Part shown: piece after piece, positions 3,719 through 16,574 of the stretch
Position numbering within the stretch: position 1 is the first letter of the stretch
How the letters are laid out: the number at the start of each line of letters is the position of its first letter
Assembly: GCA_012728835.1 (NCBI GenBank)
Contig: JAAYEJ010000077.1
Coordinates: 1 to 55,527, forward strand
Direction: 5' to 3'
Length of the DNA stretch: 55,527 nt
Source of the DNA: Candidatus Brocadiaceae bacterium
GTDB lineage: Bacteria; Planctomycetota; Brocadiia; SM23-32
Made by a program: the position numbers and the translations under genes
Notes under the pieces: generated by a model
Told to the model about the DNA's origin: nothing
The model's database searches: none
What the model saw: only the letters and a program-made list of their open reading frames with translations

Positions 3719-6700
3719 CTACCAGCAGAAGAACCGGTACGGGAAGTCGTATTCCTCCGGCACGTCGAGGTAGAGGCCGTCCAGCCAACGCTGCTCGCCG
3801 TCCCCGACCGGCTGCGACACGTGCGAGAGCAGCGGCGTGCGGCCCGCGGCTCCCATGTTGGCCAGCAGCCGCGTGACCGTGTAGGAGGCCTTCCGGAAGG
3901 TCCGCTTGATGCTCCACTGCTCCCCGGCGGAGTAGTCGAGCTGCCAGGGCGGAAGCTGGAAGAACACGACGTTGTCCTCCAGATGCCCCAGCACACCGTT
4001 GCCGACCGGCGTCGCGCCGCCCGAGACGAGCGGAAGCTCGCGCGGATCGCGGTTGTGCACGTCCGCCGGCGAGACGCCTGCCAGCGGCGACCCCAGGGGG
4101 ACCGTGTCGAAGTACGAGGCGATGTGTTCGCCCGGCGTCGTCGTGACGGCTGCGGGCAGGAACGCGCCGGCCTGCACGCCCGTCAGGCCGAGCACCAGGA
4201 CGTGTCCGCCGTCCTGCACCCAGCCGCGCACGTCGGCCGCGTTCGCACCGAGTTCTTCGCCTGCGCCCGGCCCGAGCACCAGCACCTGGTCGTCCGTCAG
4301 GTCGCCGAGGAATGCCGCCGGCTCCAGGCCCGCCGCTTCCAGGTGTTTCCGCCCAGCGTCCTCACCGGCATAGACGACCGTGCGGCGTTCGGCCGGCTCC
4401 CAGGCCGAAGCGTAGCCGACGATGTTGCGTGCCAGCGCCTCGGCAGCCGGATCGCGCTCGGTGCGGCCCGTCACGTCCATCTGGCAGAACAGCACCATCC
4501 CCTGCCCCTCGCGGTACTCCAGCAGCGGCGCGTATTGCAGCGCGTAGCCGCAGTCGAGGACCGGGAGGAAATCGCCCGCCGCCGGCTTCTCGATCAGCAC
4601 AGAGGCCACACTGCCCCGGTTGCCGCAACGCCAGCGCTCGGTGATCGTGATGCCGCACCACTTCGCCATCGGGGAGTGGTAGCTGTACTCGTAGGTGCCG
4701 CGCGGCGGCAGCAGGGTGGCGTCGCCGCGCCAGTTCCACAGGTTCTCGTCGGCAAGGCCCTCGAGCAGCGGATGCTCGGGCACGCGCGGGAACACCCAGC
4801 GCATGGCATCCCGCGCGATGCGGAAGCCGAAGCGCTTCTCCAGCACTTCGTCCGTCTGCTCGAAGATGACGACCCTCAGCCCGTCGCGTACGCGCGCGAT
4901 GTCCGGCGCGGGGCCGTCCGGCGTCAGGGAGTCCTTCCCGATGATCAGGACGTCATAGCCGGCCGGATCGTCGCCGGCCCCGACGGCGTCAAACGCAACC
5001 CCCAGTTCAGTCAGCAGTTGCGCCGTCTCCCCCTTCGGGTCGAACACTGCGATCCGCTCGGCGGCCTCCACCGGCTGCGGCATGGGCAGCACGTCGATGG
5101 GCAGGACGTCGTCCTGCCGTTCGCCATTGCTGAACTCGACCGTCGCCCGCAGGGCGTACTGGCCCGGCGGCAGATCCGCCGGCAGATCGAACGCCAGCGG
5201 GATGCGCTCCTGCTCGCCGGTGGGCAGGGTGATCGTCCGCCGTCCGACTCGGGCCGCGGGCAGGTCGAGCGACCACTCGCATTCGGCGGTCACGGTCTCG
5301 CGGCAGTTGTTGATGATGATGAGCTGCTTCTCGAACGCCTCGCCCGGAAGGAAGTTGTGGTCCTTGGTGGTGAAAGCGCCCGGCCGCCCGGCGATGTAGG
5401 CCAGCAGCGGCATGTTGTTGCGGAGGATGGCGTCCGGGGTGTGGTTGAGGAAATCGGACGGATCGTTCGACGAGAGTCCCCAGGTGCGGAACGCACGCCA
5501 GTTGTTCGTGAAGTACATCGAGTAGACGCCTTCGCGCTCCTCGTACGGATGGTTGAAGTCGTACGGGTAGTTCCAGCGCTGCCAGAAACCGTCCCCGCGG
5601 AACCGCGCGGCCTCCCAGCGCAGGTTCCGGGCCTCTTCCTCGCTGATCCGGTAGGCGGTCGGGCCGTAGAACTGCGCGTTCCACTCAGCGAGGCTCATCT
5701 CCCACGGGACGATGGCGCTGCCGAACACGCGCGTGCCCTTGTACCAGCCACGGTACATGCTCCAGTCCCAGGGGTACGGCACGCCGTACTCGTTCAGGTG
5801 CAGGGGCTTGACGCCCTCCGTCCCCCAGTGCTCGAACCAGTCGTCCATCTCCTGGATCGGCGCGAAGTTCGCATAGAAGTTGTTCGTGTGCATGACGCCC
5901 AGGTTGCCGGCGGCGTGGTGGTAGAGGATGCGCGTGGGGTCCAGGCCGTTGACAAGCGCCTGCGCCCTCAGCGCGTTGGCTGCGTTCTGCGCTCCGCTGC
6001 CCGAGCGCCGTTCGTGGATCCCGTCGATCATGTCGGGGTCCATACTGCCCATGTATCCAACCGAGTTGTGGCTGGTGGCGTAGAAGACGACCGACGGGTG
6101 ATTGCCCGCCACGTGGGTGTAGAACTCCGCGTGCTCGGCGTAGCCGTTGGTGCGCTCGGCGTCTTCGGCGTCCCAGTCATACTGGCGGAAATGCGGCTGG
6201 GTGAGCGCCATGAGCACGCCCACGTCGTCGGCAGCCCGCAGAACGCCCTCGAAGCTCACGTGGTCGCCCGGGGCGGCGCCGAATCCGCCGCACGCCCCGA
6301 AGTTGAGCCCCATGTCCTTCCTCTCCTCCAGTCGCGCCCGGCTGTCCTCGTAGTCCGATCCCGGCTGGCTGCGCGTGAACGAGAGGAAGATCCGCGTGCC
6401 GTTCAGGTAGAAGTCCCGCCCGTCAATCCAGAACTCGCGGAAGCCGAACCGCTCCGGCAGCGCCTCGTCCAGCACGTTGCCGGCGCCGTCCCGAAGCGAG
6501 AGCGTCACGTCATACTGATTCTGCGGCGTATGGATGTCCCAGAGCCTCTCGGGATGCCAGTCGCAGGTGAACGGCAGGTGCCCGTCGACGACGTCCGCCC
6601 CGCCGAACGGGTCGCTGGTGAACTCCGTGACCGCCCCGTCCGGGTCGCTGACGCGCGCATGCAGGACGTAGGTCTGCTCGGGGTCGACGTCGTCCAGGGC

Positions 6701-7438
6701 CGTGTTGAAGGTGACCTGCCAGTTGCGCACCGACGTCTCCACGCGCAGGCGGCGGATGCGCCCGCCGCGCGGCGCGCCCACCAGGCTCACGTCCCCGCAG
6801 AGGCCGCGGCGGTTCACCTGCCCCGGCACCTCCCGCGACCCCATGGTGTCGTTGAAGGACATCATGACGGCGCGGAGCGGCAGCGCCAGGACGAGCATGC
6901 TCAAGACGTGCGTCCCGCCGGGCCGGCACACCTCTGTCAGGTCCACCTCTCCCGAAGGCCAGCGCATGTCGGCCACCTTGCGGCCGTCCACGTAGACGCT
7001 GGCGAAGGAGTGCAGGTACTCGGTCGTCAGGGCGATGTGGCGCCCCTCCCATTCGGCCGGAACGGTCAGGTCGACCTGGTACCAGGCGGCCTTCACGTCC
7101 CGCAGGTGCTCGGCGGACCAGGCCGGGTTGCGCACGAACCCCTCCGTGCCGCCCCGCTGCCCGCGGCCCGATGGCCAGGGCGCCGGAACCGCCTGATAGC
7201 CCCAGCCGTCCGCCGGGACCGTGTCCACCGAATCCCCCGCCGGCTGCCACCGCCACAGGCCGGCCAGCGATATGCGTTCGCACGTAGGCGTCGCCTCGCG
7301 CTCGGCCTCATCCAGCGTCCACATCGCCCGACCCTCCGGTAGAACGGCCACCTGGGCTGCCGCCCGGTGCGCCGCAGTGCAGACCAGAGCCCCAAGCAAG
7401 CACACGACCAGACCGACCCTCGGTGACTTCCGATTCAT
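3719..7438 (-). CDS. GH2-like giant secreted protein, complete (paralog 2)
   Basis: A 1239-residue protein. ATG at 7438 is chosen because AGGGGAGG stands just upstream and a typical signal peptide follows (MNRKSPR, then a hydrophobic stretch ending AHRAAAQ). Order: signal peptide, GH2 sugar-binding jelly-roll (about 45-220), Ig-like domain (to about 340), TIM barrel (about 340-700), then beta-sandwich and GATase-like regions, ending DFPYRFFCW. The barrel block NHPSVVFYATSHN aligns with the GH2 acid/base block but has Asn458 where Glu is expected; the nucleophile-like Glu550 (LNEYG) is kept. YHHAAGNLG between them is conserved in all three copies. It may form an operon with the dehydrogenase downstream. 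It could be a glycosidase with displaced acid/base chemistry, or a non-hydrolytic binding protein. Confidence 0.9.
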   Translation of the reverse strand: MNRKSPRVGLVVCLLGALVCTAAHRAAAQVAVLPEGRAMWTLDEAEREATPTCERISLAGLWRWQPAGDSVDTVPADGWGYQAVPAPWPSGRGQRGGTEGFVRNPAWSAEHLRDVKAAWYQVDLTVPAEWEGRHIALTTEYLHSFASVYVDGRKVADMRWPSGEVDLTEVCRPGGTHVLSMLVLALPLRAVMMSFNDTMGSREVPGQVNRRGLCGDVSLVGAPRGGRIRRLRVETSVRNWQVTFNTALDDVDPEQTYVLHARVSDPDGAVTEFTSDPFGGADVVDGHLPFTCDWHPERLWDIHTPQNQYDVTLSLRDGAGNVLDEALPERFGFREFWIDGRDFYLNGTRIFLSFTRSQPGSDYEDSRARLEERKDMGLNFGACGGFGAAPGDHVSFEGVLRAADDVGVLMALTQPHFRQYDWDAEDAERTNGYAEHAEFYTHVAGNHPSVVFYATSHNSVGYMGSMDPDMIDGIHERRSGSGAQNAANALRAQALVNGLDPTRILYHHAAGNLGVMHTNNFYANFAPIQEMDDWFEHWGTEGVKPLHLNEYGVPYPWDWSMYRGWYKGTRVFGSAIVPWEMSLAEWNAQFYGPTAYRISEEEARNLRWEAARFRGDGFWQRWNYPYDFNHPYEEREGVYSMYFTNNWRAFRTWGLSSNDPSDFLNHTPDAILRNNMPLLAYIAGRPGAFTTKDHNFLPGEAFEKQLIIINNCRETVTAECEWSLDLPAARVGRRTITLPTGEQERIPLAFDLPADLPPGQYALRATVEFSNGERQDDVLPIDVLPMPQPVEAAERIAVFDPKGETAQLLTELGVAFDAVGAGDDPAGYDVLIIGKDSLTPDGPAPDIARVRDGLRVVIFEQTDEVLEKRFGFRIARDAMRWVFPRVPEHPLLEGLADENLWNWRGDATLLPPRGTYEYSYHSPMAKWCGITITERWRCGNRGSVASVLIEKPAAGDFLPVLDCGYALQYAPLLEYREGQGMVLFCQMDVTGRTERDPAAEALARNIVGYASAWEPAERRTVVYAGEDAGRKHLEAAGLEPAAFLGDLTDDQVLVLGPGAGEELGANAADVRGWVQDGGHVLVLGLTGVQAGAFLPAAVTTTPGEHIASYFDTVPLGSPLAGVSPADVHNRDPRELPLVSGGATPVGNGVLGHLEDNVVFFQLPPWQLDYSAGEQWSIKRTFRKASYTVTRLLANMGAAGRTPLLSHVSQPVGDGEQRWLDGLYLDVPEEYDFPYRFFCW

Positions 7439-7616
7439 GACGGCCACCTCCCCTGAACCGATCGCCCCCGGCCCCCGCCCGTCCGCCGGGCATCCTTGCC
7501 GGGGCGACCCGGCACGTCGAAGTGTACGGGAACGCGTGCGGCCGCGCAAGCCCTGCCGCAATGCCCGGCGGCACTGGCACGGCCGGCGCATCTCATGGTA
7601 GCGTGGAGTATGGAGA

Positions 7617-7638
7617 GCCCCGCGGGGGCCCGCGGGGC
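7617..7638. repeat. Strong GC hairpin in the leader of the thioredoxin gene
   Basis: GCCCCGCGGG and its exact reverse complement are separated by only two bases, giving at least 9 pairs with a short loop. It lies 27 bp before the ATG at 7665. There is no following T-run, so it does not look like an intrinsic terminator. It may be a structured leader or an mRNA-stabilising element. Confidence 0.5.
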
Positions 7639-7664
7639 GGGGAGTCTCTTCGGAAAGGGGGCCG

Positions 7665-8285
7665 ATGATGGTCCGCACTGCCGGTCTTGCCGTCGTCCTT
7701 GCCGTCGCCGTCACGTTCCTGTCCGGTGTGGCGTCCGCCGCCGAAACCCTGAAGCCGGGCGCCGAAGCGCCCGCCTTCGAGCTGTTCGGCGTGGACTACA
7801 GGTATCACAGTCTGGAGGGCGCCGCAGAGGCCAGAGCGCGCGTTCTGATCTTCACCTGCAACCACTGCCCCGTGGCCGTGAGCTACGAGGACACGCTGGT
7901 CGCCCTGGGCAACGAATACCAGCCGAAGGGCATCCAGTTCATCGCGATCAACACGAACCCGGCCGACATGGTGGCCGCCGACGGGTTCCCCCAGATGATC
8001 GAACGCGCCAAGGAGAAGAACCTGCCGTACCCATACCTCTACGACGAGACGCAGAAGGTGTCCAGGGCCTACGGCGCGACCGTCACGCCGCATATCTTCG
8101 TCGTCGGCCCCGAAGGCACCATCCTCTACGAGGGGGCCGCGGACAACCGCCGTCGCGAGCCGAACTACCTGGCCGACGCCCTGGACGCCATCCTGGCCGG
8201 CCGGCCGGTTCCGGACGCGTCCACGGCGGAGTTCGGCTGCACGGTGAAGTACCGCCCGGAGCCCAGGGAAGCGCAGGGGGAGTGA
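7665..8285 (+). CDS. Exported thioredoxin-fold (redoxin/AhpC-TSA type) protein
   Basis: A 206-residue protein with a signal peptide (MMVRT, hydrophobic to about residue 22, AxA-type site near SAAE) followed by a redoxin domain. The motif FTCNHCPVA gives a CxxC pair at C65/C68, typical of a thioredoxin-family subgroup with CNHCP in place of CGPC. The rest of the fold is visible as FIAINTNPAD and a cis-Pro block TVTPHIFVV. It probably acts as a periplasmic thiol-disulfide protein. AAAGGGGG precedes two adjacent ATGs (7665, 7668) and either could start translation. The lipoprotein TlpA-like gene begins two bases after its stop codon, so both are one operon. Confidence 0.85.
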   Translation: MMVRTAGLAVVLAVAVTFLSGVASAAETLKPGAEAPAFELFGVDYRYHSLEGAAEARARVLIFTCNHCPVAVSYEDTLVALGNEYQPKGIQFIAINTNPADMVAADGFPQMIERAKEKNLPYPYLYDETQKVSRAYGATVTPHIFVVGPEGTILYEGAADNRRREPNYLADALDAILAGRPVPDASTAEFGCTVKYRPEPREAQGE

Positions 8286-8870: not shown

Positions 8871-9398
8871 TCAGAACACGAAAAGGCCCACCACGCCCGA
8901 CCCGGCGATGACGGCCAGCGGGTGCACCTTGCCCTCGCACAGCGTCAGCAGCGCGAACGCCCCGGCGGCGATCGCGAACTCCATCGGGGCCGCGATGACG
9001 ATCCGCCCGTACGACCAGACCGCGAACAGCAGCAGGCTGAGCACGCCGATGCGCAGCCCGCGCCGCAGGCGCAGGAAGTGGTCGTTCGGCCCGCTCCGCG
9101 TGCGCACGCTCTCCAGCAGTGTCAGCATCAGCAGGGCGGGCAGAACCACCACTGCCGTCGCCAGGAGCGCCCCGCCCAGGCCGGCGACACGGAAGCCGAC
9201 GAACGTGGCGGCGTTGACGGCAATCGGCCCCGGCGTCATCTGCGCGACGGCCACGATCCGCGACATCTCCTGCTCCTGAAGGAACCCGCGGTTCTCCACC
9301 AGCTCGCGGCCCATCAGCGGCACGGTCACCAGCCCGCCCCCGTAGGCGCCGACGCCGATGATTGCGAAGCTCACTGTCAGCAGCCACAGCTTCTGCAT
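8871..9398 (-). CDS. chrA: Chromate transporter family (CHR) protein, single CHR domain
   Basis: A 175-residue membrane protein equal to one half of a long ChrA. Typical CHR motifs are visible: GVGAYGGG near the N-terminus, AVAQMTPGPIAVNAATFVGF, and several hydrophobic helices. Short CHR proteins usually work as pairs from adjacent genes with opposite topology; the partner is the gene 18 bp upstream (9417-10583). Family members export chromate or related oxyanions, but many are unassigned. The chrA symbol denotes the family only. Confidence 0.88.
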   Translation of the reverse strand: MQKLWLLTVSFAIIGVGAYGGGLVTVPLMGRELVENRGFLQEQEMSRIVAVAQMTPGPIAVNAATFVGFRVAGLGGALLATAVVVLPALLMLTLLESVRTRSGPNDHFLRLRRGLRIGVLSLLLFAVWSYGRIVIAAPMEFAIAAGAFALLTLCEGKVHPLAVIAGSGVVGLFVF

Positions 9399-9416: not shown

Positions 9417-10583
9417 TCAAAGCAGTTCCGCACACTCCCGCCGGGCCGTCACGACGAGGTTCCTGAGTCCCCGAACCCCGTCCGCCCGGAGCCACTGATC
9501 GAGGAACCCCTCCCGCGCCGCCATCTGCGCCAGCCCCGCGATGCAGGCCAGGTAACACTCGCGCATATCCAGCGACCCGACCAGCACGAAGACGATCCGG
9601 ACCTGCGGCGCCTGCTCGGAGAAGAAGGCCCCGCCCCGGCATCGCACCAGCGCCATCTTCAGCACGTTCTGGCCGTCGACAACGACGTGCGGCAGCGCCA
9701 CGGACGGACTGACCGCGGTGCTGCTGGCGGCCTCGCGATGCTTCAGCGCCGCCGCCAGCGCCGACCGCTCCGCCGGAGCCGGCCCGCCGAGTTCCTGCCC
9801 GACCAGCTCGAGCAGCTCATCGGAGGAGACCGCCCCCTTCAGGTCGAGCACCGGCGCCTTCTCCAGCAGTGCGCGCACCCGGCCGCGCAACCGGTCATGC
9901 GGGTAGTAGATGATCTCCCGCAGGTCCGCCCCGTAGTGCTCGCCGAGCAGTTCCTGCGCGGGGATGCCCTCGATGAGCTTCAGGAGCGCCAGCCCCTCCT
10001 CGGTCTCCTCACGCACCGCCATCCGCTCGCGCATCAGCAGGTAACCCAGCCCGGCGGCCACCAGGACCGCCCAGATGGGGTGCGGACCGAAGACGGCCAC
10101 CGCCAGCCCCGCAGCGCCCACGAATGCGTTCTGCCACGTGCGCCGAAGCCTTCGCGCGAACGTCAGGGCGGAGAACGCAATCTGCCCCGCCACGGCGATG
10201 GCACAGCCCTTCAGGAAGGCGGCCACCGCAGGATGGTCGAAGTACGGCGCGCCGAATCGGACGATCAGCAGCATCACGAGAACCGACGGGCACACGGTGC
10301 CGGCGGCGGCCGTCGCGGCGCCGCGCATGCCCGCCAGACGCCGTCCCTCCACAAACGCCAGGTTGACGGCGATCGCGCCGGGAACGGCCGTCGCCCGCGA
10401 CAGGACGTCCACGAACTCCCGATCGGTCAGCCACCGGCGCCTCAGGACCAGCTCGTGGCGCATGACGGCGGCCATGGCGAACCCGCCGCCGAAGGTCATC
10501 AGGCCGATGCGGAAGTACGTCCAGAAGAGCCTCAGGCACGACACCGAGGGCGCGTTCGCAAGGTCCTGGTTCACTGCACTCAT
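9417..10583 (-). CDS. CHR-domain transporter fused to a PTS EIIA(type 2)-like domain
   Basis: A 388-residue protein. Residues about 15-190 are a CHR domain (GLMTFGGGFAMAAVM; SRATAVPGAIAVNLAFVEGRR; several helices). After a linker, residues about 235-388 resemble the EIIA-Ntr/EIIA-fructose family: REAASSTAVSPSVALPHVVV, with His299 in the position of the phosphorylated histidine (consensus AIPHA), then VRIVFVLVGS and a C-terminal helical part. ATG 10583 was chosen; an in-frame GTG at 10610 is possible. The companion CHR half lies downstream. The fusion suggests transport gated by PTS phosphorylation or protein contact. The domain assignment rests on motif reading, not on a search. Confidence 0.8.
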   Translation of the reverse strand: MSAVNQDLANAPSVSCLRLFWTYFRIGLMTFGGGFAMAAVMRHELVLRRRWLTDREFVDVLSRATAVPGAIAVNLAFVEGRRLAGMRGAATAAAGTVCPSVLVMLLIVRFGAPYFDHPAVAAFLKGCAIAVAGQIAFSALTFARRLRRTWQNAFVGAAGLAVAVFGPHPIWAVLVAAGLGYLLMRERMAVREETEEGLALLKLIEGIPAQELLGEHYGADLREIIYYPHDRLRGRVRALLEKAPVLDLKGAVSSDELLELVGQELGGPAPAERSALAAALKHREAASSTAVSPSVALPHVVVDGQNVLKMALVRCRGGAFFSEQAPQVRIVFVLVGSLDMRECYLACIAGLAQMAAREGFLDQWLRADGVRGLRNLVVTARRECAELL

Positions 10584-10686: not shown

Positions 10687-11229
10687 TCAGCGGGCCGCCG
10701 CCAGTTCGTGGAGCACGCGCTCGTGCAGGCGCCGGTCCTCTTCGCTGAAGAGCACGAAGCGGACGCAGCGCACGGACCTCAGCCTCGGCGCCGCCTCCAG
10801 CACGGTCGCGAACGCAACCCGCGCGGCGGCCTCCATCGGATAGCCGAACACCCCGGTCGAGATGGCCGGGAAGGCCACGGAGGCCAGCGTCTTCTCCTCG
10901 GCTCGCAGGAGCGCGTTCCGATAGCACGCGGCCAGAAGCCCGTCGGACGGAGTGTCGACCCCGTAGACCGGCCCCAGGCAGTGGATGACATGCGGGTTGG
11001 GCAGGTTGTGCCCGCCGGTGATCACCGCGTCGCCCGGTCGGATCGGCGCCAGCGGCCTGCACTCCGCCTCCAGGCCCGGGCCGGCCGCGCGGTGGATCGC
11101 CCCGGCCACGCCGCCGCCCGGCCGCAACTGTGCGTTGGCGGCGTTCACGATCGCATCCACGTCCGGCTGACGCGTGATGTCGCCCCGCACACACTCGATG
11201 GTCACGCCATGGACCTCGCGTATGGACAT
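10687..11229 (-). CDS. Macro domain protein (ADP-ribose / O-acetyl-ADP-ribose hydrolase type)
   Basis: A 180-residue single macro domain. Signatures: GDITRQPDVDAIVNAANAQL with the catalytic-type Asn pair, GGGVAGAIHRAAG, and AFPAISTGVFGYP for the phosphate-binding loop. These are the features of the MacroD/YmdB class, which removes ADP-ribose from proteins or deacetylates O-acetyl-ADP-ribose. ATG 11229 has GGAGG about 13 bases upstream. No ART or sirtuin is nearby, so its target is unknown. Confidence 0.93.
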   Translation of the reverse strand: MSIREVHGVTIECVRGDITRQPDVDAIVNAANAQLRPGGGVAGAIHRAAGPGLEAECRPLAPIRPGDAVITGGHNLPNPHVIHCLGPVYGVDTPSDGLLAACYRNALLRAEEKTLASVAFPAISTGVFGYPMEAAARVAFATVLEAAPRLRSVRCVRFVLFSEEDRRLHERVLHELAAAR

Positions 11230-12486: not shown

Positions 12487-15400
12487 CTACCAGACGAAGA
12501 ACCGATAGGGATCGTCCAGCTCCACCGGCGTGTCCATGTAGAGGGCGTCCAGCCACCGCGTCTCATCGCTCCGCACCGGCTCTGCGAAGCGCTCCGGCAG
12601 CGGCGTCCGACCGCGCACGCCCATGTTCGCCAGCACCCGGTTCACCAGGTAGCTCGCCCGCCGATAGGTCATCTTCCGGTTGAACTGCTCCTCGTAGTCG
12701 AACTGCCAGGGCACCAACTGGCAGAAGACGACGCCCGGCGCCAGGCCGAGCACGCCGTTGCCGACCGGGGTGGCCCCTGCGGTGACGAGGCTCAGCTCGC
12801 GCGGATCGCGGTTGTGCACGTCGGCCGGCCCCACGCCCGCCAGCGGCGAACCCAGAGGGGCCGCCGGGAGGACGGCGTTGATGTGTTCGGCCTGCCGCAT
12901 CGCCACGCGCCCGGGCAACACGGCGTTCGCCTCGGCTTCGGTGAGCCCGACGGCCAGCACGCGCCCGCCCTCGCCGAGCCACGCGGCGATCTCGGCCCGG
13001 TGCGGCGCCAGTGGCCCCGCGGCGCCCGGGCCGATGGCCAGCACACGGTCCGCCGCCGGGCGGCCGCCTTCATAGTCCGCCGGGCTCAGGCCCGCCGCCT
13101 TCAGGTGCGCCCTGCCGGCCTGGTCGCCGGCGTAGAGCAGGCCGCGCGGCGCATCGGGCCGCCACCCGTCCGCATAGGCCAGCAGGTTGCGCACCAGCCG
13201 CCCGGCAGCCGGGTCGTCCTCGGTGCGGCCGGTCACGTCCATCTGGCAGAAGACCACCAGACCGTTGCCCTCGCGCCACTCCAGCAAGGGGCTGTACTGC
13301 AGCCCGAAGGCCCCGTCGACGATGGGCAGGAAGTCGCCGCAGGCGGGCTTCTCGATCAGGACCGATGCCACGCTGCCGCGCCGGCTCGACCGCCATCCGC
13401 GCGTGACGTCCAGGCCGCACCACTTCGTGAGGGGATACTGCCAGCGAACGAACTCGTACTCCAGGACCGGCGGGACGCTCGTCGCCTGGCCCCGCCAGTC
13501 GCGCAGATTGGCCGTCGCGAGGCCCGCCAGCACGGGGTGGTCCGGCACGCGCGGGAACACCCGCCGGAGCCCGTACTCCTGCACGCGAAAGCCCAGGCGC
13601 CTCTCCAGGACGTCCCGCGTCTGCTCGAACACGATCGCCCGGAGCCCGCCGCGCACGGGCGCCAGGTCGGGCGCCGGGCCGTCGGCCGTCAGGGCGTGCC
13701 TGCCGATGACCAGCAGGTCGAAGCCGGCCAGGTCGGCCCCGGCGTCGATGGCCGTGGCTTCGATCCCGAGGGACCGGAGCAGCGCGGCCGTCTCCCCCTT
13801 CGGGTCGAACAGCGCGACGCGGCCCCTGCACTCGAGCGCCGGCGCGGGCGCCAACACGTGCACGGCGAAGGCGTCGTCCTGCACCTCGCCCGTGTCGAAC
13901 CGCGTGCGCATGGTCAGTGCATACTCGCCGGCCGGCAAGGCGTCCGGCAGCGCGATCTCGAGCGGAATGCGTGCCTGTTCGCCCGTCTCGACCGTCGCCT
14001 GCGCGGCGCCGCTCACCGGCGTCGGTGCGGCCAGGGTCCACGAGCAGTCCGCCGTGACCGTGCGCCGCGAGTTGTTGATGACGATGATCTGCTTGCGCAC
14101 CGTCTCGCCGGGCAGCACGTTGTGGTCCTTGCCGGTGAACTCGCCCGGTCGGCCGGCGATGTAAGCGAGCAGCGGGCGGTTGTTGCGCAGGAACGCCTCG
14201 CCGGTCGCGGCCGGCTGCCAGTCCTCCCGGGCATAGGCCATCTCGAAGGACTCCTGGCGCCGGTCCACCAGGTCCGGGCTGAAGCCCGGCCGCTGCAGCG
14301 CGTCCCAGTCGGTCGGGAACTCCACGGCCCGGCGGTCCACCCCGTCCCGGAGCTTGAACAGGTTGTTGTGCGTCCAGATGTTGAAGGCCGTCACGCCCCA
14401 GGTGCGGTAGGCGCGCCAGTTGTCGGTGATGTAGGCCGCCCCGACGTCGGCCACATTCGGTATGCCGAGCGGGGACGCGGTGATCGGCGACGGGTAGTCC
14501 CAGCGCTTGAAGGGGCGGTTCTCCCGCCAGCGTCCCGCCTCGTAGCGCAGGTTGCGCCGCTCGGTCTCGGTCAGGTCGAACGCGGCATCGCCTCGGAACT
14601 GCGCGCCCCACTCGGCCGTGCAGAACTGCCAGAGCAGGCTGTCGTTTCCGTAGACCCAGCGCCCCTCCATCTTGCCGTTCGGATAGCCCCGGTGCATCGT
14701 CCAGCTCAATTCGCACGGAGCACCGTACTCCGTCAGTATCAGCGGCATCACGCCGGCGTTCGCCCAGTGCTCGAACCAGTCCGACCGCTCCTGGATGGGC
14801 ACGAAGTTGATGTAGTGGTTCAGGGTGTGCATCTGCCCCAGGGTGCCCGCCGAATGGTGGTAGATGGGCCGGGTCGTGTCGAACCGCTGCACGACGGCCT
14901 CGGAGCGGAGGCCGATCAGGGCCCGCTCGTCGTCGCGGGGGCCCTTCTCGCCCATGCGGTCGTGCAGCCCGTCCATGTGGTGCGGGTTCACGCTGTCGGC
15001 ATAACCCATGGTGTTGGCGTTCATGGCATACATGACCACGGACGGATGGTTCTGCGCCATGCGCACGTAGAACTCAGCCTGCTCGGCGAAGCCGTTCGTC
15101 TCCTCCGCGTCGGGCGCGTCCCATGGGAAGTCCATGGCGTGAGGCAAAAAGAGCGCCATCAGCATCCCCACGTCGTCGGCCGCCCGGAATATCTCCTCCA
15201 GACCCACGTGCACGCCCGGATGGCAGTTGTAGTTGTGCGTGTAGACCAGGTTCACGCCCACGTCCTTGAGGCGCCGGAAGGTCTCGCAGGCGCCCTCGTA
15301 GGTCGCGCCCGCCACGCCGGTCTTACCCGCCCGGTGGCTCTCCAGCGGCAGCACGAAGCACTGGATGCGGGAGCCGTTCAGGCGCAAGTCCCGCCCGTCC

Positions 15401-16422
15401 ACCCGCAACTCGCGGAAGCCGAAGCGCACGGGCAGGAAGGCGTCAAGAACCCCGCCCGCGCCGTCCACAAGCGAGACCTCCGCAATGCACACGTTCTGCG
15501 GCGTGTGCGTGTCCCACAGCCGATCGGGACGCCAGGGCGCGCCGAACCGGAAGCGCCCTCCGGCCAGGGCGTCCGCCCCGAACGCCGGGCCCTCGACCTC
15601 CCGCACGGTCTCCCCGTCCTGCTTGAACACGGCGCGCAGGCCGTACTCACGGCCGGCCTCCAGGCCCTCCAGGGCGACGTCCAGCGACACGGTCCCGTCG
15701 CGCACCGAGGTGTCCACCTTGACGTCGGTGATGCGCGCGCCCGCCGGCGTGGCGGTCAGGAACACGTCACCGCACAGGCCGCGCCCGTCGACGGTCCCCT
15801 TCACCTCGCTCGACTGATTCGTCTGGCTGAACACGGTGACGACGTCCTTCAGCGGCACCGCCGCCACGAAGAGCGTCAGGACGTGGCTCGCGCCGGGCCG
15901 GCAGGCGGAGGTGATGTCCACCTCGCCCCAGGGGAAGCGGATCTCGCCCAGCCGCCGGCCGTCCACGTAGACGGCGGCGAACGAGTTCAAGTAGGCCGTG
16001 GAGACCGCGATACGCCGACCCGCCCAGTCCTGCGGGATGCCGATCGTGCGCTGGTGCCAGGCCTGGTTGACCTCCGACAGGCGGCGGTCCGCCCAGCTCG
16101 GGTGCGGGTAGAGCCGCTGGTTGTCGGACCGGTCGCCGCGCGGCCACGGCCCCGGCACCTTGATGTGGCCCCAGCCGCCGTCCGGCAGGGGCTCGTCCGC
16201 GCTGCGCGCCGGCCGGAACCTCCAGAGCCCGTTGATGCAGACGCGTTCCCGCGTCGTCGTCGCCTCCCGATGGGCCTTCGCGAGGTCCCAGACCGCACGC
16301 ACGCCGGGCGGCAGAGGCGCGGCGGCATCCTCCGCGCCCCGGCCCGGGGACGCCGCACAGACCCACAGGCCCAGAAGAACCACCGTCCCGACGACCCGTC
16401 CCGCGACGCCACCGCGCACCAT
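12487..16422 (-). CDS. GH2-like giant secreted protein, complete (paralog 3)
   Basis: A 1311-residue protein. ATG 16422 follows GGGAGGG, and a signal peptide follows (MVRGGVAGR, hydrophobic run, ASPGRGAED). The architecture equals that of the copies at 1-2538 and 3719-7438: jelly-roll (about 60-230), Ig-like, TIM barrel, then beta-sandwich and GATase-like regions, ending DDPYRFFVW. In the acid/base block NHPSVVMYAMNAN, Asn470 replaces the GH2 Glu; the nucleophile-like Glu565 (LTEYGAP) is present, as is YHHSAGTLG. It carries an insertion relative to paralog 2 around WTHNNLFKL, and resembles truncated paralog 1 in having a longer segment there. Probably periplasmic or extracellular; substrate unknown. 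Confidence 0.9.
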   Translation of the reverse strand: MVRGGVAGRVVGTVVLLGLWVCAASPGRGAEDAAAPLPPGVRAVWDLAKAHREATTTRERVCINGLWRFRPARSADEPLPDGGWGHIKVPGPWPRGDRSDNQRLYPHPSWADRRLSEVNQAWHQRTIGIPQDWAGRRIAVSTAYLNSFAAVYVDGRRLGEIRFPWGEVDITSACRPGASHVLTLFVAAVPLKDVVTVFSQTNQSSEVKGTVDGRGLCGDVFLTATPAGARITDVKVDTSVRDGTVSLDVALEGLEAGREYGLRAVFKQDGETVREVEGPAFGADALAGGRFRFGAPWRPDRLWDTHTPQNVCIAEVSLVDGAGGVLDAFLPVRFGFRELRVDGRDLRLNGSRIQCFVLPLESHRAGKTGVAGATYEGACETFRRLKDVGVNLVYTHNYNCHPGVHVGLEEIFRAADDVGMLMALFLPHAMDFPWDAPDAEETNGFAEQAEFYVRMAQNHPSVVMYAMNANTMGYADSVNPHHMDGLHDRMGEKGPRDDERALIGLRSEAVVQRFDTTRPIYHHSAGTLGQMHTLNHYINFVPIQERSDWFEHWANAGVMPLILTEYGAPCELSWTMHRGYPNGKMEGRWVYGNDSLLWQFCTAEWGAQFRGDAAFDLTETERRNLRYEAGRWRENRPFKRWDYPSPITASPLGIPNVADVGAAYITDNWRAYRTWGVTAFNIWTHNNLFKLRDGVDRRAVEFPTDWDALQRPGFSPDLVDRRQESFEMAYAREDWQPAATGEAFLRNNRPLLAYIAGRPGEFTGKDHNVLPGETVRKQIIVINNSRRTVTADCSWTLAAPTPVSGAAQATVETGEQARIPLEIALPDALPAGEYALTMRTRFDTGEVQDDAFAVHVLAPAPALECRGRVALFDPKGETAALLRSLGIEATAIDAGADLAGFDLLVIGRHALTADGPAPDLAPVRGGLRAIVFEQTRDVLERRLGFRVQEYGLRRVFPRVPDHPVLAGLATANLRDWRGQATSVPPVLEYEFVRWQYPLTKWCGLDVTRGWRSSRRGSVASVLIEKPACGDFLPIVDGAFGLQYSPLLEWREGNGLVVFCQMDVTGRTEDDPAAGRLVRNLLAYADGWRPDAPRGLLYAGDQAGRAHLKAAGLSPADYEGGRPAADRVLAIGPGAAGPLAPHRAEIAAWLGEGGRVLAVGLTEAEANAVLPGRVAMRQAEHINAVLPAAPLGSPLAGVGPADVHNRDPRELSLVTAGATPVGNGVLGLAPGVVFCQLVPWQFDYEEQFNRKMTYRRASYLVNRVLANMGVRGRTPLPERFAEPVRSDETRWLDALYMDTPVELDDPYRFFVW

Positions 16423-16574
16423 GCCGACGCCCTCCCTTCCCAGCTCTGTGCGGCCCGGCTGCCGCCGGCCCGAGCCTCTGCGGATGTTACCCGTCCGCCG
16501 CCCCACATGCCAGAGCAGGACCGAACCCGCCGCGTCACTCCGAGCCACTGCACAAGTGCCGCGGTGCCGGATGG

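What the first reader, a model, noticed from the sequence alone, without database searches (positions are those of the whole stretch)
9417..10583. Chromate-type transporter half fused to a PTS EIIA-like domain
CHR motifs are followed by a domain with EIIA hallmarks, including ALPHV with His299 at the phosphorylation position. A CHR-EIIA fusion is unfamiliar to me. It suggests that ion export is coupled to PTS-Ntr phosphorylation. Only one of the two CHR halves carries it, so it could regulate the heterodimer.
Basis: partly seen in the sequence, partly recalled or inferred. Interest (0 to 1): 0.65.

Follow-up and report, generated by a model that had tools for sequence, protein, structure and literature searches.

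The report
Chromate-type transporter half fused to EIIA
One half of a two-part chromate-family ion transporter carries a phosphorylatable EIIA regulatory domain, evidently copied from an amino-acid permease of the same lineage, so ion export in this uncultured bacterium is probably switched directly by a phosphotransferase relay that seems to have no sugar permease.

Summary
Confirmed. Window 9417-10583 (minus) encodes a 388-aa protein with an N-terminal CHR half (Pfam E 2e-38) and a C-terminal EIIA domain (E 1e-11; PtsN-like by profile and predicted fold). The unfused second CHR half follows 18 bp downstream.

The EIIA part with its linker is a recurrent cassette. In the same phylum it is attached to APC amino-acid permeases (one in this genome, its sister in the tree), a ClC channel, Na+/H+ exchangers with TrkA-N, and the Mrp subunit MnhG. 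The CHR version was found once in about 430 genomes.

His299 is invariant in 34 of 34 cassettes. The second active-site His is Tyr344 here, as in related cassettes. The genome encodes EI, HPr and six EIIA domains but no EIIC or EIIB of the families tested, so its PTS looks regulatory. Charge distribution puts only the P0001 C-terminus in the cytosol, which explains why one half alone carries the domain.

Best model: EI, HPr, then His299 phosphorylation gates the CHR pair in cis, as unphosphorylated PtsN inhibits YcgO in trans. Phosphorylation, direction of control and transported ion are inferred. New variant of a known kind.

The parts
9417..10583 (-). CHR N half fused to linker-EIIA cassette, 388 aa (P0001)
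   Evidence: ORF and Pfam
10041..10535 (-). CHR membrane domain, residues 17-181
   Evidence: Pfam PF02417 E 2.2e-38; N-half match to TIGR00937 positions 2-167
9420..10013 (-). Linker plus EIIA cassette, residues 191-388
   Evidence: 40% identical to the C-terminus of an APC permease in the same genome; 34-row alignment A1
9477..9833 (-). EIIA domain proper, residues 251-369
   Evidence: Pfam PF00359 E 1e-11; PtsN fold
9687..9689 (-). His299 codon, predicted phosphorylation site
   Evidence: Invariant in 34 of 34 cassettes
9552..9554 (-). Tyr344 codon, at the place of the second active-site His of PtsN
   Evidence: Column is H in 28, Y in 5, F in 1 of 34 rows
8871..9398 (-). Second, unfused CHR half (C-type), 175 aa (P0002), with GGAG upstream and an 18-bp gap to the fused gene
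   Evidence: Pfam PF02417 E 2.2e-36; TIGR00937 positions 201-368; intergenic sequence

Best explanation
The gene pair encodes a two-subunit CHR-family anion transporter whose N-half subunit gained a C-terminal linker-EIIA cassette from an APC amino-acid permease of its own lineage. The domain probably works as a built-in phosphorylation switch. PEP phosphorylates EI, EI phosphorylates HPr, and HPr phosphorylates His299. The phosphorylation state changes how the cassette contacts the cytosolic face of the CHR pair and so gates efflux. By analogy with PtsN and YcgO, the unphosphorylated form (low PEP supply) is the more likely inhibitory state. Loss of the second active-site His fits a domain that accepts a phosphoryl group but need not pass it on. 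Shown here by sequence: the fusion, EIIA identity, conserved His299, presence of EI and HPr, and kinship of the cassette with APC permeases. Supported only by charge distribution: cytosolic location. Inferred: phosphorylation itself, gating, its direction, and the transported ion.
For: CHR and EIIA domains in one frame. PtsN-like profile and fold. His299 and the neighbouring R283, E284, T289, P298 kept although the cassette is on a long branch; 22 of 29 conserved positions kept. EI and HPr encoded in the genome; no EIIC or EIIB of the families tested. Cassette shared with APC, ClC, Na+/H+ exchanger and MnhG proteins, so the common denominator is solute and ion transport. K+R bias puts the P0001 C-terminus inside and the P0002 C-terminus outside. 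Precedent in trans: unphosphorylated PtsN binds and inhibits YcgO (PMC11808508).
Against: No biochemical data. Second active-site His replaced by Tyr and the conserved DRFD linker motif lost, so phosphotransfer or its coupling may have changed. Only one example, so selection on the fused form cannot be tested. The published orientation of the B. subtilis CHR halves, which I recall only vaguely and could not check, may disagree with the charge-based topology.
Confidence: 0.52

Rival explanations
1. The EIIA domain is used for its fold, not its chemistry: a cytosolic docking, dimerisation or ligand-sensing domain that regulates the transporter without phosphorylation, as the EIIA-fold N-terminal domain of eukaryotic SLC4 anion exchangers does.
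For: SLC4 cytosolic domains are the next best structural matches after PtsN, and the resemblance is published (PMC4664831, PMC5608694). Second active-site His lost.
Against: His299 and its surroundings are kept on a fast-evolving branch, and a PTS donor chain is present. From general knowledge, not tested here, SLC4 domains have no phospho-His.
Confidence: 0.25
2. The cassette is a passenger: it was joined to the CHR gene by chance and is drifting, with little effect on transport.
For: Single occurrence, long branch of 1.93, loss of 7 of 29 conserved positions.
Against: All conserved positions around the phospho-His are kept, the frame is open and the model folds well. The same cassette is kept on several other transporter families.
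Confidence: 0.16
3. The domain takes part in phosphate relay to another protein, with the transporter as a membrane anchor or sensor.
For: It keeps the acceptor His.
Against: No EIIB of PF02302 in the genome to receive the phosphate; the second His is missing.
Confidence: 0.05
4. Assembly or binning artefact that joined two unrelated genes.
For: The genome is a draft in 82 contigs, and no second copy of the fusion was found.
Against: One open frame inside a 55-kb contig, no N, even GC3. The second CHR half follows in the normal operon position. The cassette is only 40% identical to the other copy in the genome and starts right after the last membrane segment, as in other fusions.
Confidence: 0.02

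Closest known systems
Short-chain CHR pairs such as YwrB/YwrA (Chr3N/Chr3C) of B. subtilis (PMC8940164)
   Same: Two CHR halves encoded side by side; both halves match PF02417.
   Different: Known short-chain halves are about 200 aa with no cytosolic domain; here the N half has a 200-residue EIIA extension. Chromate transport is not shown here.
APC amino-acid permeases with the same C-terminal linker-EIIA cassette (L055 in the same genome, L008 and others)
   Same: Homologous cassette, same attachment right after the last membrane segment, same phospho-His.
   Different: Unrelated membrane domain; single-subunit permease; most keep the second His and the DRFD motif.
PtsN (EIIA-Ntr) acting in trans on the K+/H+ antiporter YcgO and on TrkA in E. 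coli (PMC11808508, PMC13104625)
   Same: EIIA-Ntr-type domain, phospho-His, control of an ion transporter by a PTS without a sugar permease.
   Different: There PtsN is a separate protein and the targets are K+ systems; here the domain is covalently part of an anion-type transporter. Control is shown there, inferred here.
SLC4 anion exchangers with an EIIA-fold cytosolic domain (Band 3, NDCBE; PMC4664831, PMC5608694)
   Same: Anion transporter fused to a cytosolic EIIA-fold domain.
   Different: N-terminal position, eukaryotic, unrelated membrane domain; no PTS involved.
ClC-EIIA (L022), MnhG-EIIA (L053), Na+/H+ exchanger-TrkA_N-EIIA (L058, L061) of the same phylum
   Same: Same cassette on ion-transport proteins.
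   Different: Different transporter families; none is CHR.

Membership tests
CHR (chromate ion transporter) superfamily | Match to the CHR domain over its full length | tested here: met
   PF02417 positions 1-166 of 166, E 2.2e-38 and 2.2e-36 for the two halves
CHR (chromate ion transporter) superfamily | Short-chain type: two adjacent genes for an N-type and a C-type half | tested here: met
   TIGR00937 N-half and C-half matches; 18-bp gap
CHR (chromate ion transporter) superfamily | Transport of chromate or a related anion | not testable with these tools
   Needs an uptake or resistance assay. The chromate-specific NCBIfam equivalogs are far below cut-off (63-64 against 250 bits), so chromate as substrate is not claimed
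PTS EIIA type 2 (fructose/mannitol/Ntr) domain | Domain match above the curated cut-off | tested here: met
   PF00359 45.5 bits against 27; PtsN by profile and fold
PTS EIIA type 2 (fructose/mannitol/Ntr) domain | Phospho-accepting His in the (A)xPH motif | tested here: met
   His299, 34 of 34 rows
PTS EIIA type 2 (fructose/mannitol/Ntr) domain | Second active-site His | tested here: not met
   Tyr344; also Y or F in five related rows, so the domain is filed as EIIA-like, not as a canonical phosphotransferase
PTS EIIA type 2 (fructose/mannitol/Ntr) domain | Phosphate transfer from HPr | not testable with these tools
   Needs purified proteins
PtsN equivalog (TIGR01419) | Score above the equivalog cut-off | tested here: not met
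   18.3 bits against 138.7: PtsN-like domain, not a PtsN ortholog
PTS-Ntr system | EI with an N-terminal GAF domain (PtsP) | tested here: not met
   The only EI found has PEP-utilisers N, mobile and C domains and no GAF
PTS-Ntr system | Relay EI-HPr-EIIA without EIIB and EIIC | tested here: met
   EI, HPr and EIIA found; PF02378 and PF02302 absent from a 96.9% complete genome. Mannose- and glucose-type families were not searched
SLC4 cytosolic domain | Sequence match to Band_3_cyto | tested here: not met
   No hit for P0001 even at E 10; resemblance is by fold only

The most novel reading that the evidence does not exclude
In this lineage the PTS has lost sugar transport and become a dedicated phosphorelay that controls ion and amino-acid traffic in cis, through a transferable linker-EIIA cassette plugged into APC, ClC, Na+/H+ exchanger, Mrp and CHR transporters, alongside EIIA units attached to a diadenylate cyclase, to a Usp-like region and to a V/A-ATPase operon. 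The CHR pair is one output of this switchboard.
Probability: 0.42. Interest if true: 0.75.

Novelty: new variant of a known kind. Interest (0 to 1): 0.55.

Why it matters
How regulatory PTS proteins control ion transporters is known mostly from PtsN acting in trans in proteobacteria. Natural fusions show which transporters are meant to be controlled and fix the stoichiometry, so the mechanism can be tested on one polypeptide. The CHR case ties an anion exporter of uncertain physiological role to the cell's PEP supply. The cassette also gives a sequence handle for finding further PTS-controlled transporters.

Tried and rejected
A second CHR-EIIA fusion was sought in 392 genomes across the phylum, all 75 held genomes of the class, two further classes, the GTDB-wide contig scan (close relatives only) and plasmids: none. 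The closest unfused CHR relative (L037, 49%) ends at 190 aa with a stop. G425 has an N-type CHR start cut by a contig end (C275:5-118) and cannot be judged. L039 (48% over 108 residues, the most similar cassette fragment) is cut upstream by its contig end; its downstream neighbour is not a CHR half, so an APC partner is likelier. The full-length structure model used a misaligned alignment (A2, checked) and is not used. No solved CHR structure was found by sequence. Literature searches found no CHR-EIIA or APC-EIIA fusion, but the library holds open-licence papers only.

Full report
The observation. The minus strand of the window carries one open frame, 9417-10583, 388 codons. Pfam assigns a chromate transporter (CHR) domain to residues 17-181 (E 2.2e-38) and a PTS EIIA type 2 domain to residues 251-369 (E 1e-11), both above the curated cut-offs. 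The next gene, 8871-9398, begins 18 bp further on behind a GGAG motif and is a plain CHR half. By TIGR00937 the fused gene is the N half and its partner the C half. GC and GC3 are even across the junction and there are no N in the window. The fusion is real as far as sequence can say.

What the EIIA part is. Against solved structures the single sequence gives only a weak match to EIIA-Mtl (E 0.007), but a profile of 34 related cassettes finds E. coli PtsN at 7.5e-16 and other PtsN proteins next. The AlphaFold2 model of residues 191-388 (pLDDT 88.5, pTM 0.85) matches PtsN structures with target-normalised TM-scores of 0.77-0.84 and also the cytosolic domains of SLC4 anion exchangers. That resemblance of SLC4 N-terminal domains to EIIA-Ntr is published (PMC4664831, PMC5608694). 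It is a fold-level precedent for an anion transporter carrying this domain.

Where it came from. Homology beyond CHR starts at about residue 191, immediately after the last predicted membrane segment, and covers a helical linker plus EIIA. The best full-length relative is the C-terminus of an APC amino-acid permease in the same genome (40% identity, query residues 172-382; Pfam AA_permease_2 plus PTS_EIIA_2). Across the phylum the same cassette sits on many APC permeases, on a ClC chloride channel (L022), on Na+/H+ exchangers with TrkA-N (L058 and L061 by Pfam; L059 and L062 by sequence), and on the Mrp subunit MnhG (L053 by Pfam; L057 by sequence). In a maximum-likelihood tree the window's cassette pairs with the APC cassette of its own genome (96/81) inside a three-row group of its own taxonomic family (98/91), on a long branch of 1.93. 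The simplest history is transfer of the cassette from an APC permease to the CHR N half in this lineage, followed by fast change. A long branch is placed with less certainty.

Is the phosphorylation site kept? His299 is identical in all 34 cassettes. Of 29 positions conserved at 90% or more in the other 33, the window keeps 22, including R283, E284, T289, A296, P298 and H299; the losses fall in the linker motif DRFD and at scattered other positions. The second active-site His of PtsN-type domains is Tyr344 here. That column is H in 28 rows, and all six rows with Y or F come from the window's own family. Retention of the acceptor site on a fast branch argues for a phosphorylation-dependent role. 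That loss of the second His makes the domain an acceptor switch rather than a relay is inference.

Is there a donor? The genome (3.07 Mb, 82 contigs, 96.9% complete) encodes EI, HPr (with a second, weaker HPr-like repeat) and a PtsN-like EIIA in one cluster next to a ribosome hibernation factor gene. No HPr kinase, no EIIC of PF02378 and no EIIB of PF02302 were found; the mannose- and glucose-type families were not searched. There are six EIIA domains in all. The system therefore looks regulatory. EI lacks a GAF domain, so it is not PtsP in the strict sense.

Why one half only. In N-type halves positive charges lie in the TM4-TM5 loop and the C-terminal tail; in C-type halves they lie in the TM3-TM4 loop, and the C-terminus has none. 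The pattern also holds in unfused pairs. The sorting of halves was by score, and two apparent C-type halves fell into the N-type set, which weakens rather than creates the contrast. By the positive-inside rule the two subunits are antiparallel and only P0001 ends in the cytosol, where HPr could reach an appended EIIA. From memory, a study of the B. subtilis pair reported antiparallel topology; I could not check its orientation, and it may disagree.

How it most likely works. EI~P passes phosphate to HPr and HPr to His299, and the phosphorylation state sets the contact between the cassette and the CHR pair. In E. coli unphosphorylated PtsN binds and inhibits the K+/H+ antiporter YcgO, and phosphorylation weakens the contact (PMC11808508); PtsN also binds TrkA and KdpD (PMC13104625). 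The fusion would do the same in cis, so low PEP supply would tend to close the exporter. Direction of control and transported ion are not known. The main rival is a phosphorylation-independent use of the fold, as in SLC4.

How common. No other CHR-EIIA protein was found in about 430 distinct genomes of the phylum, in the GTDB-wide contig scan (close relatives only) or on plasmids. Incomplete assemblies leave one unresolved candidate (G425:C275). Other databases of domain architectures could not be queried, so absence from the literature is not claimed beyond the open-licence library.

Verdict. The novelty is a new partner (CHR) for a cassette that evidently moves between transporters. I file the protein as a member of the CHR superfamily that carries an EIIA-like domain, not as a PtsN ortholog.

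Noticed in passing
L004:595-1998 (-), G000 contig 56, same genome: 468-aa protein with EIIA, DacZ_P and DAC domains: an EIIA domain fused to a putative diadenylate cyclase, which would link the PTS to cyclic di-AMP.
   Followed up: partly
L056:356-5028 (-), G000 contig 48, same genome: A stand-alone EIIA gene (4528-5028) heads a V/A-type ATPase operon with a G-like subunit and subunits I, K and F.
   Followed up: partly
L003:775-1929 (+), G000 contig 16, same genome: 385-aa protein with a Usp-like N-terminal region (judged by eye, no Pfam hit) and a C-terminal EIIA.
   Followed up: no
L074:1346-2446 (+), G421, same family: EIIA fused in front of the Mrp antiporter subunit MnhE, a second way of joining EIIA to Mrp beside the MnhG fusions L053 and L057.
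   Followed up: partly
L050:3803-5307 (-), G000 contig 19, same genome: HPF, EIIA, HPr and EI genes in one cluster; HPr carries a second, degenerate HPr-like repeat. The EIIA also has a sub-threshold hit to Band_3_cyto (E 7e-8).
   Followed up: partly
window 3719-7714 (-) and 12487-16548 (-): Two very long related proteins of over 1300 aa, resembling glycoside hydrolases of the beta-galactosidase type by eye, flank the locus.
   Followed up: no
window 10690-11229 (-): Macro-domain protein (Pfam E 2.7e-40) directly upstream on the same strand; a functional link to the transporter is not evident.
   Followed up: no
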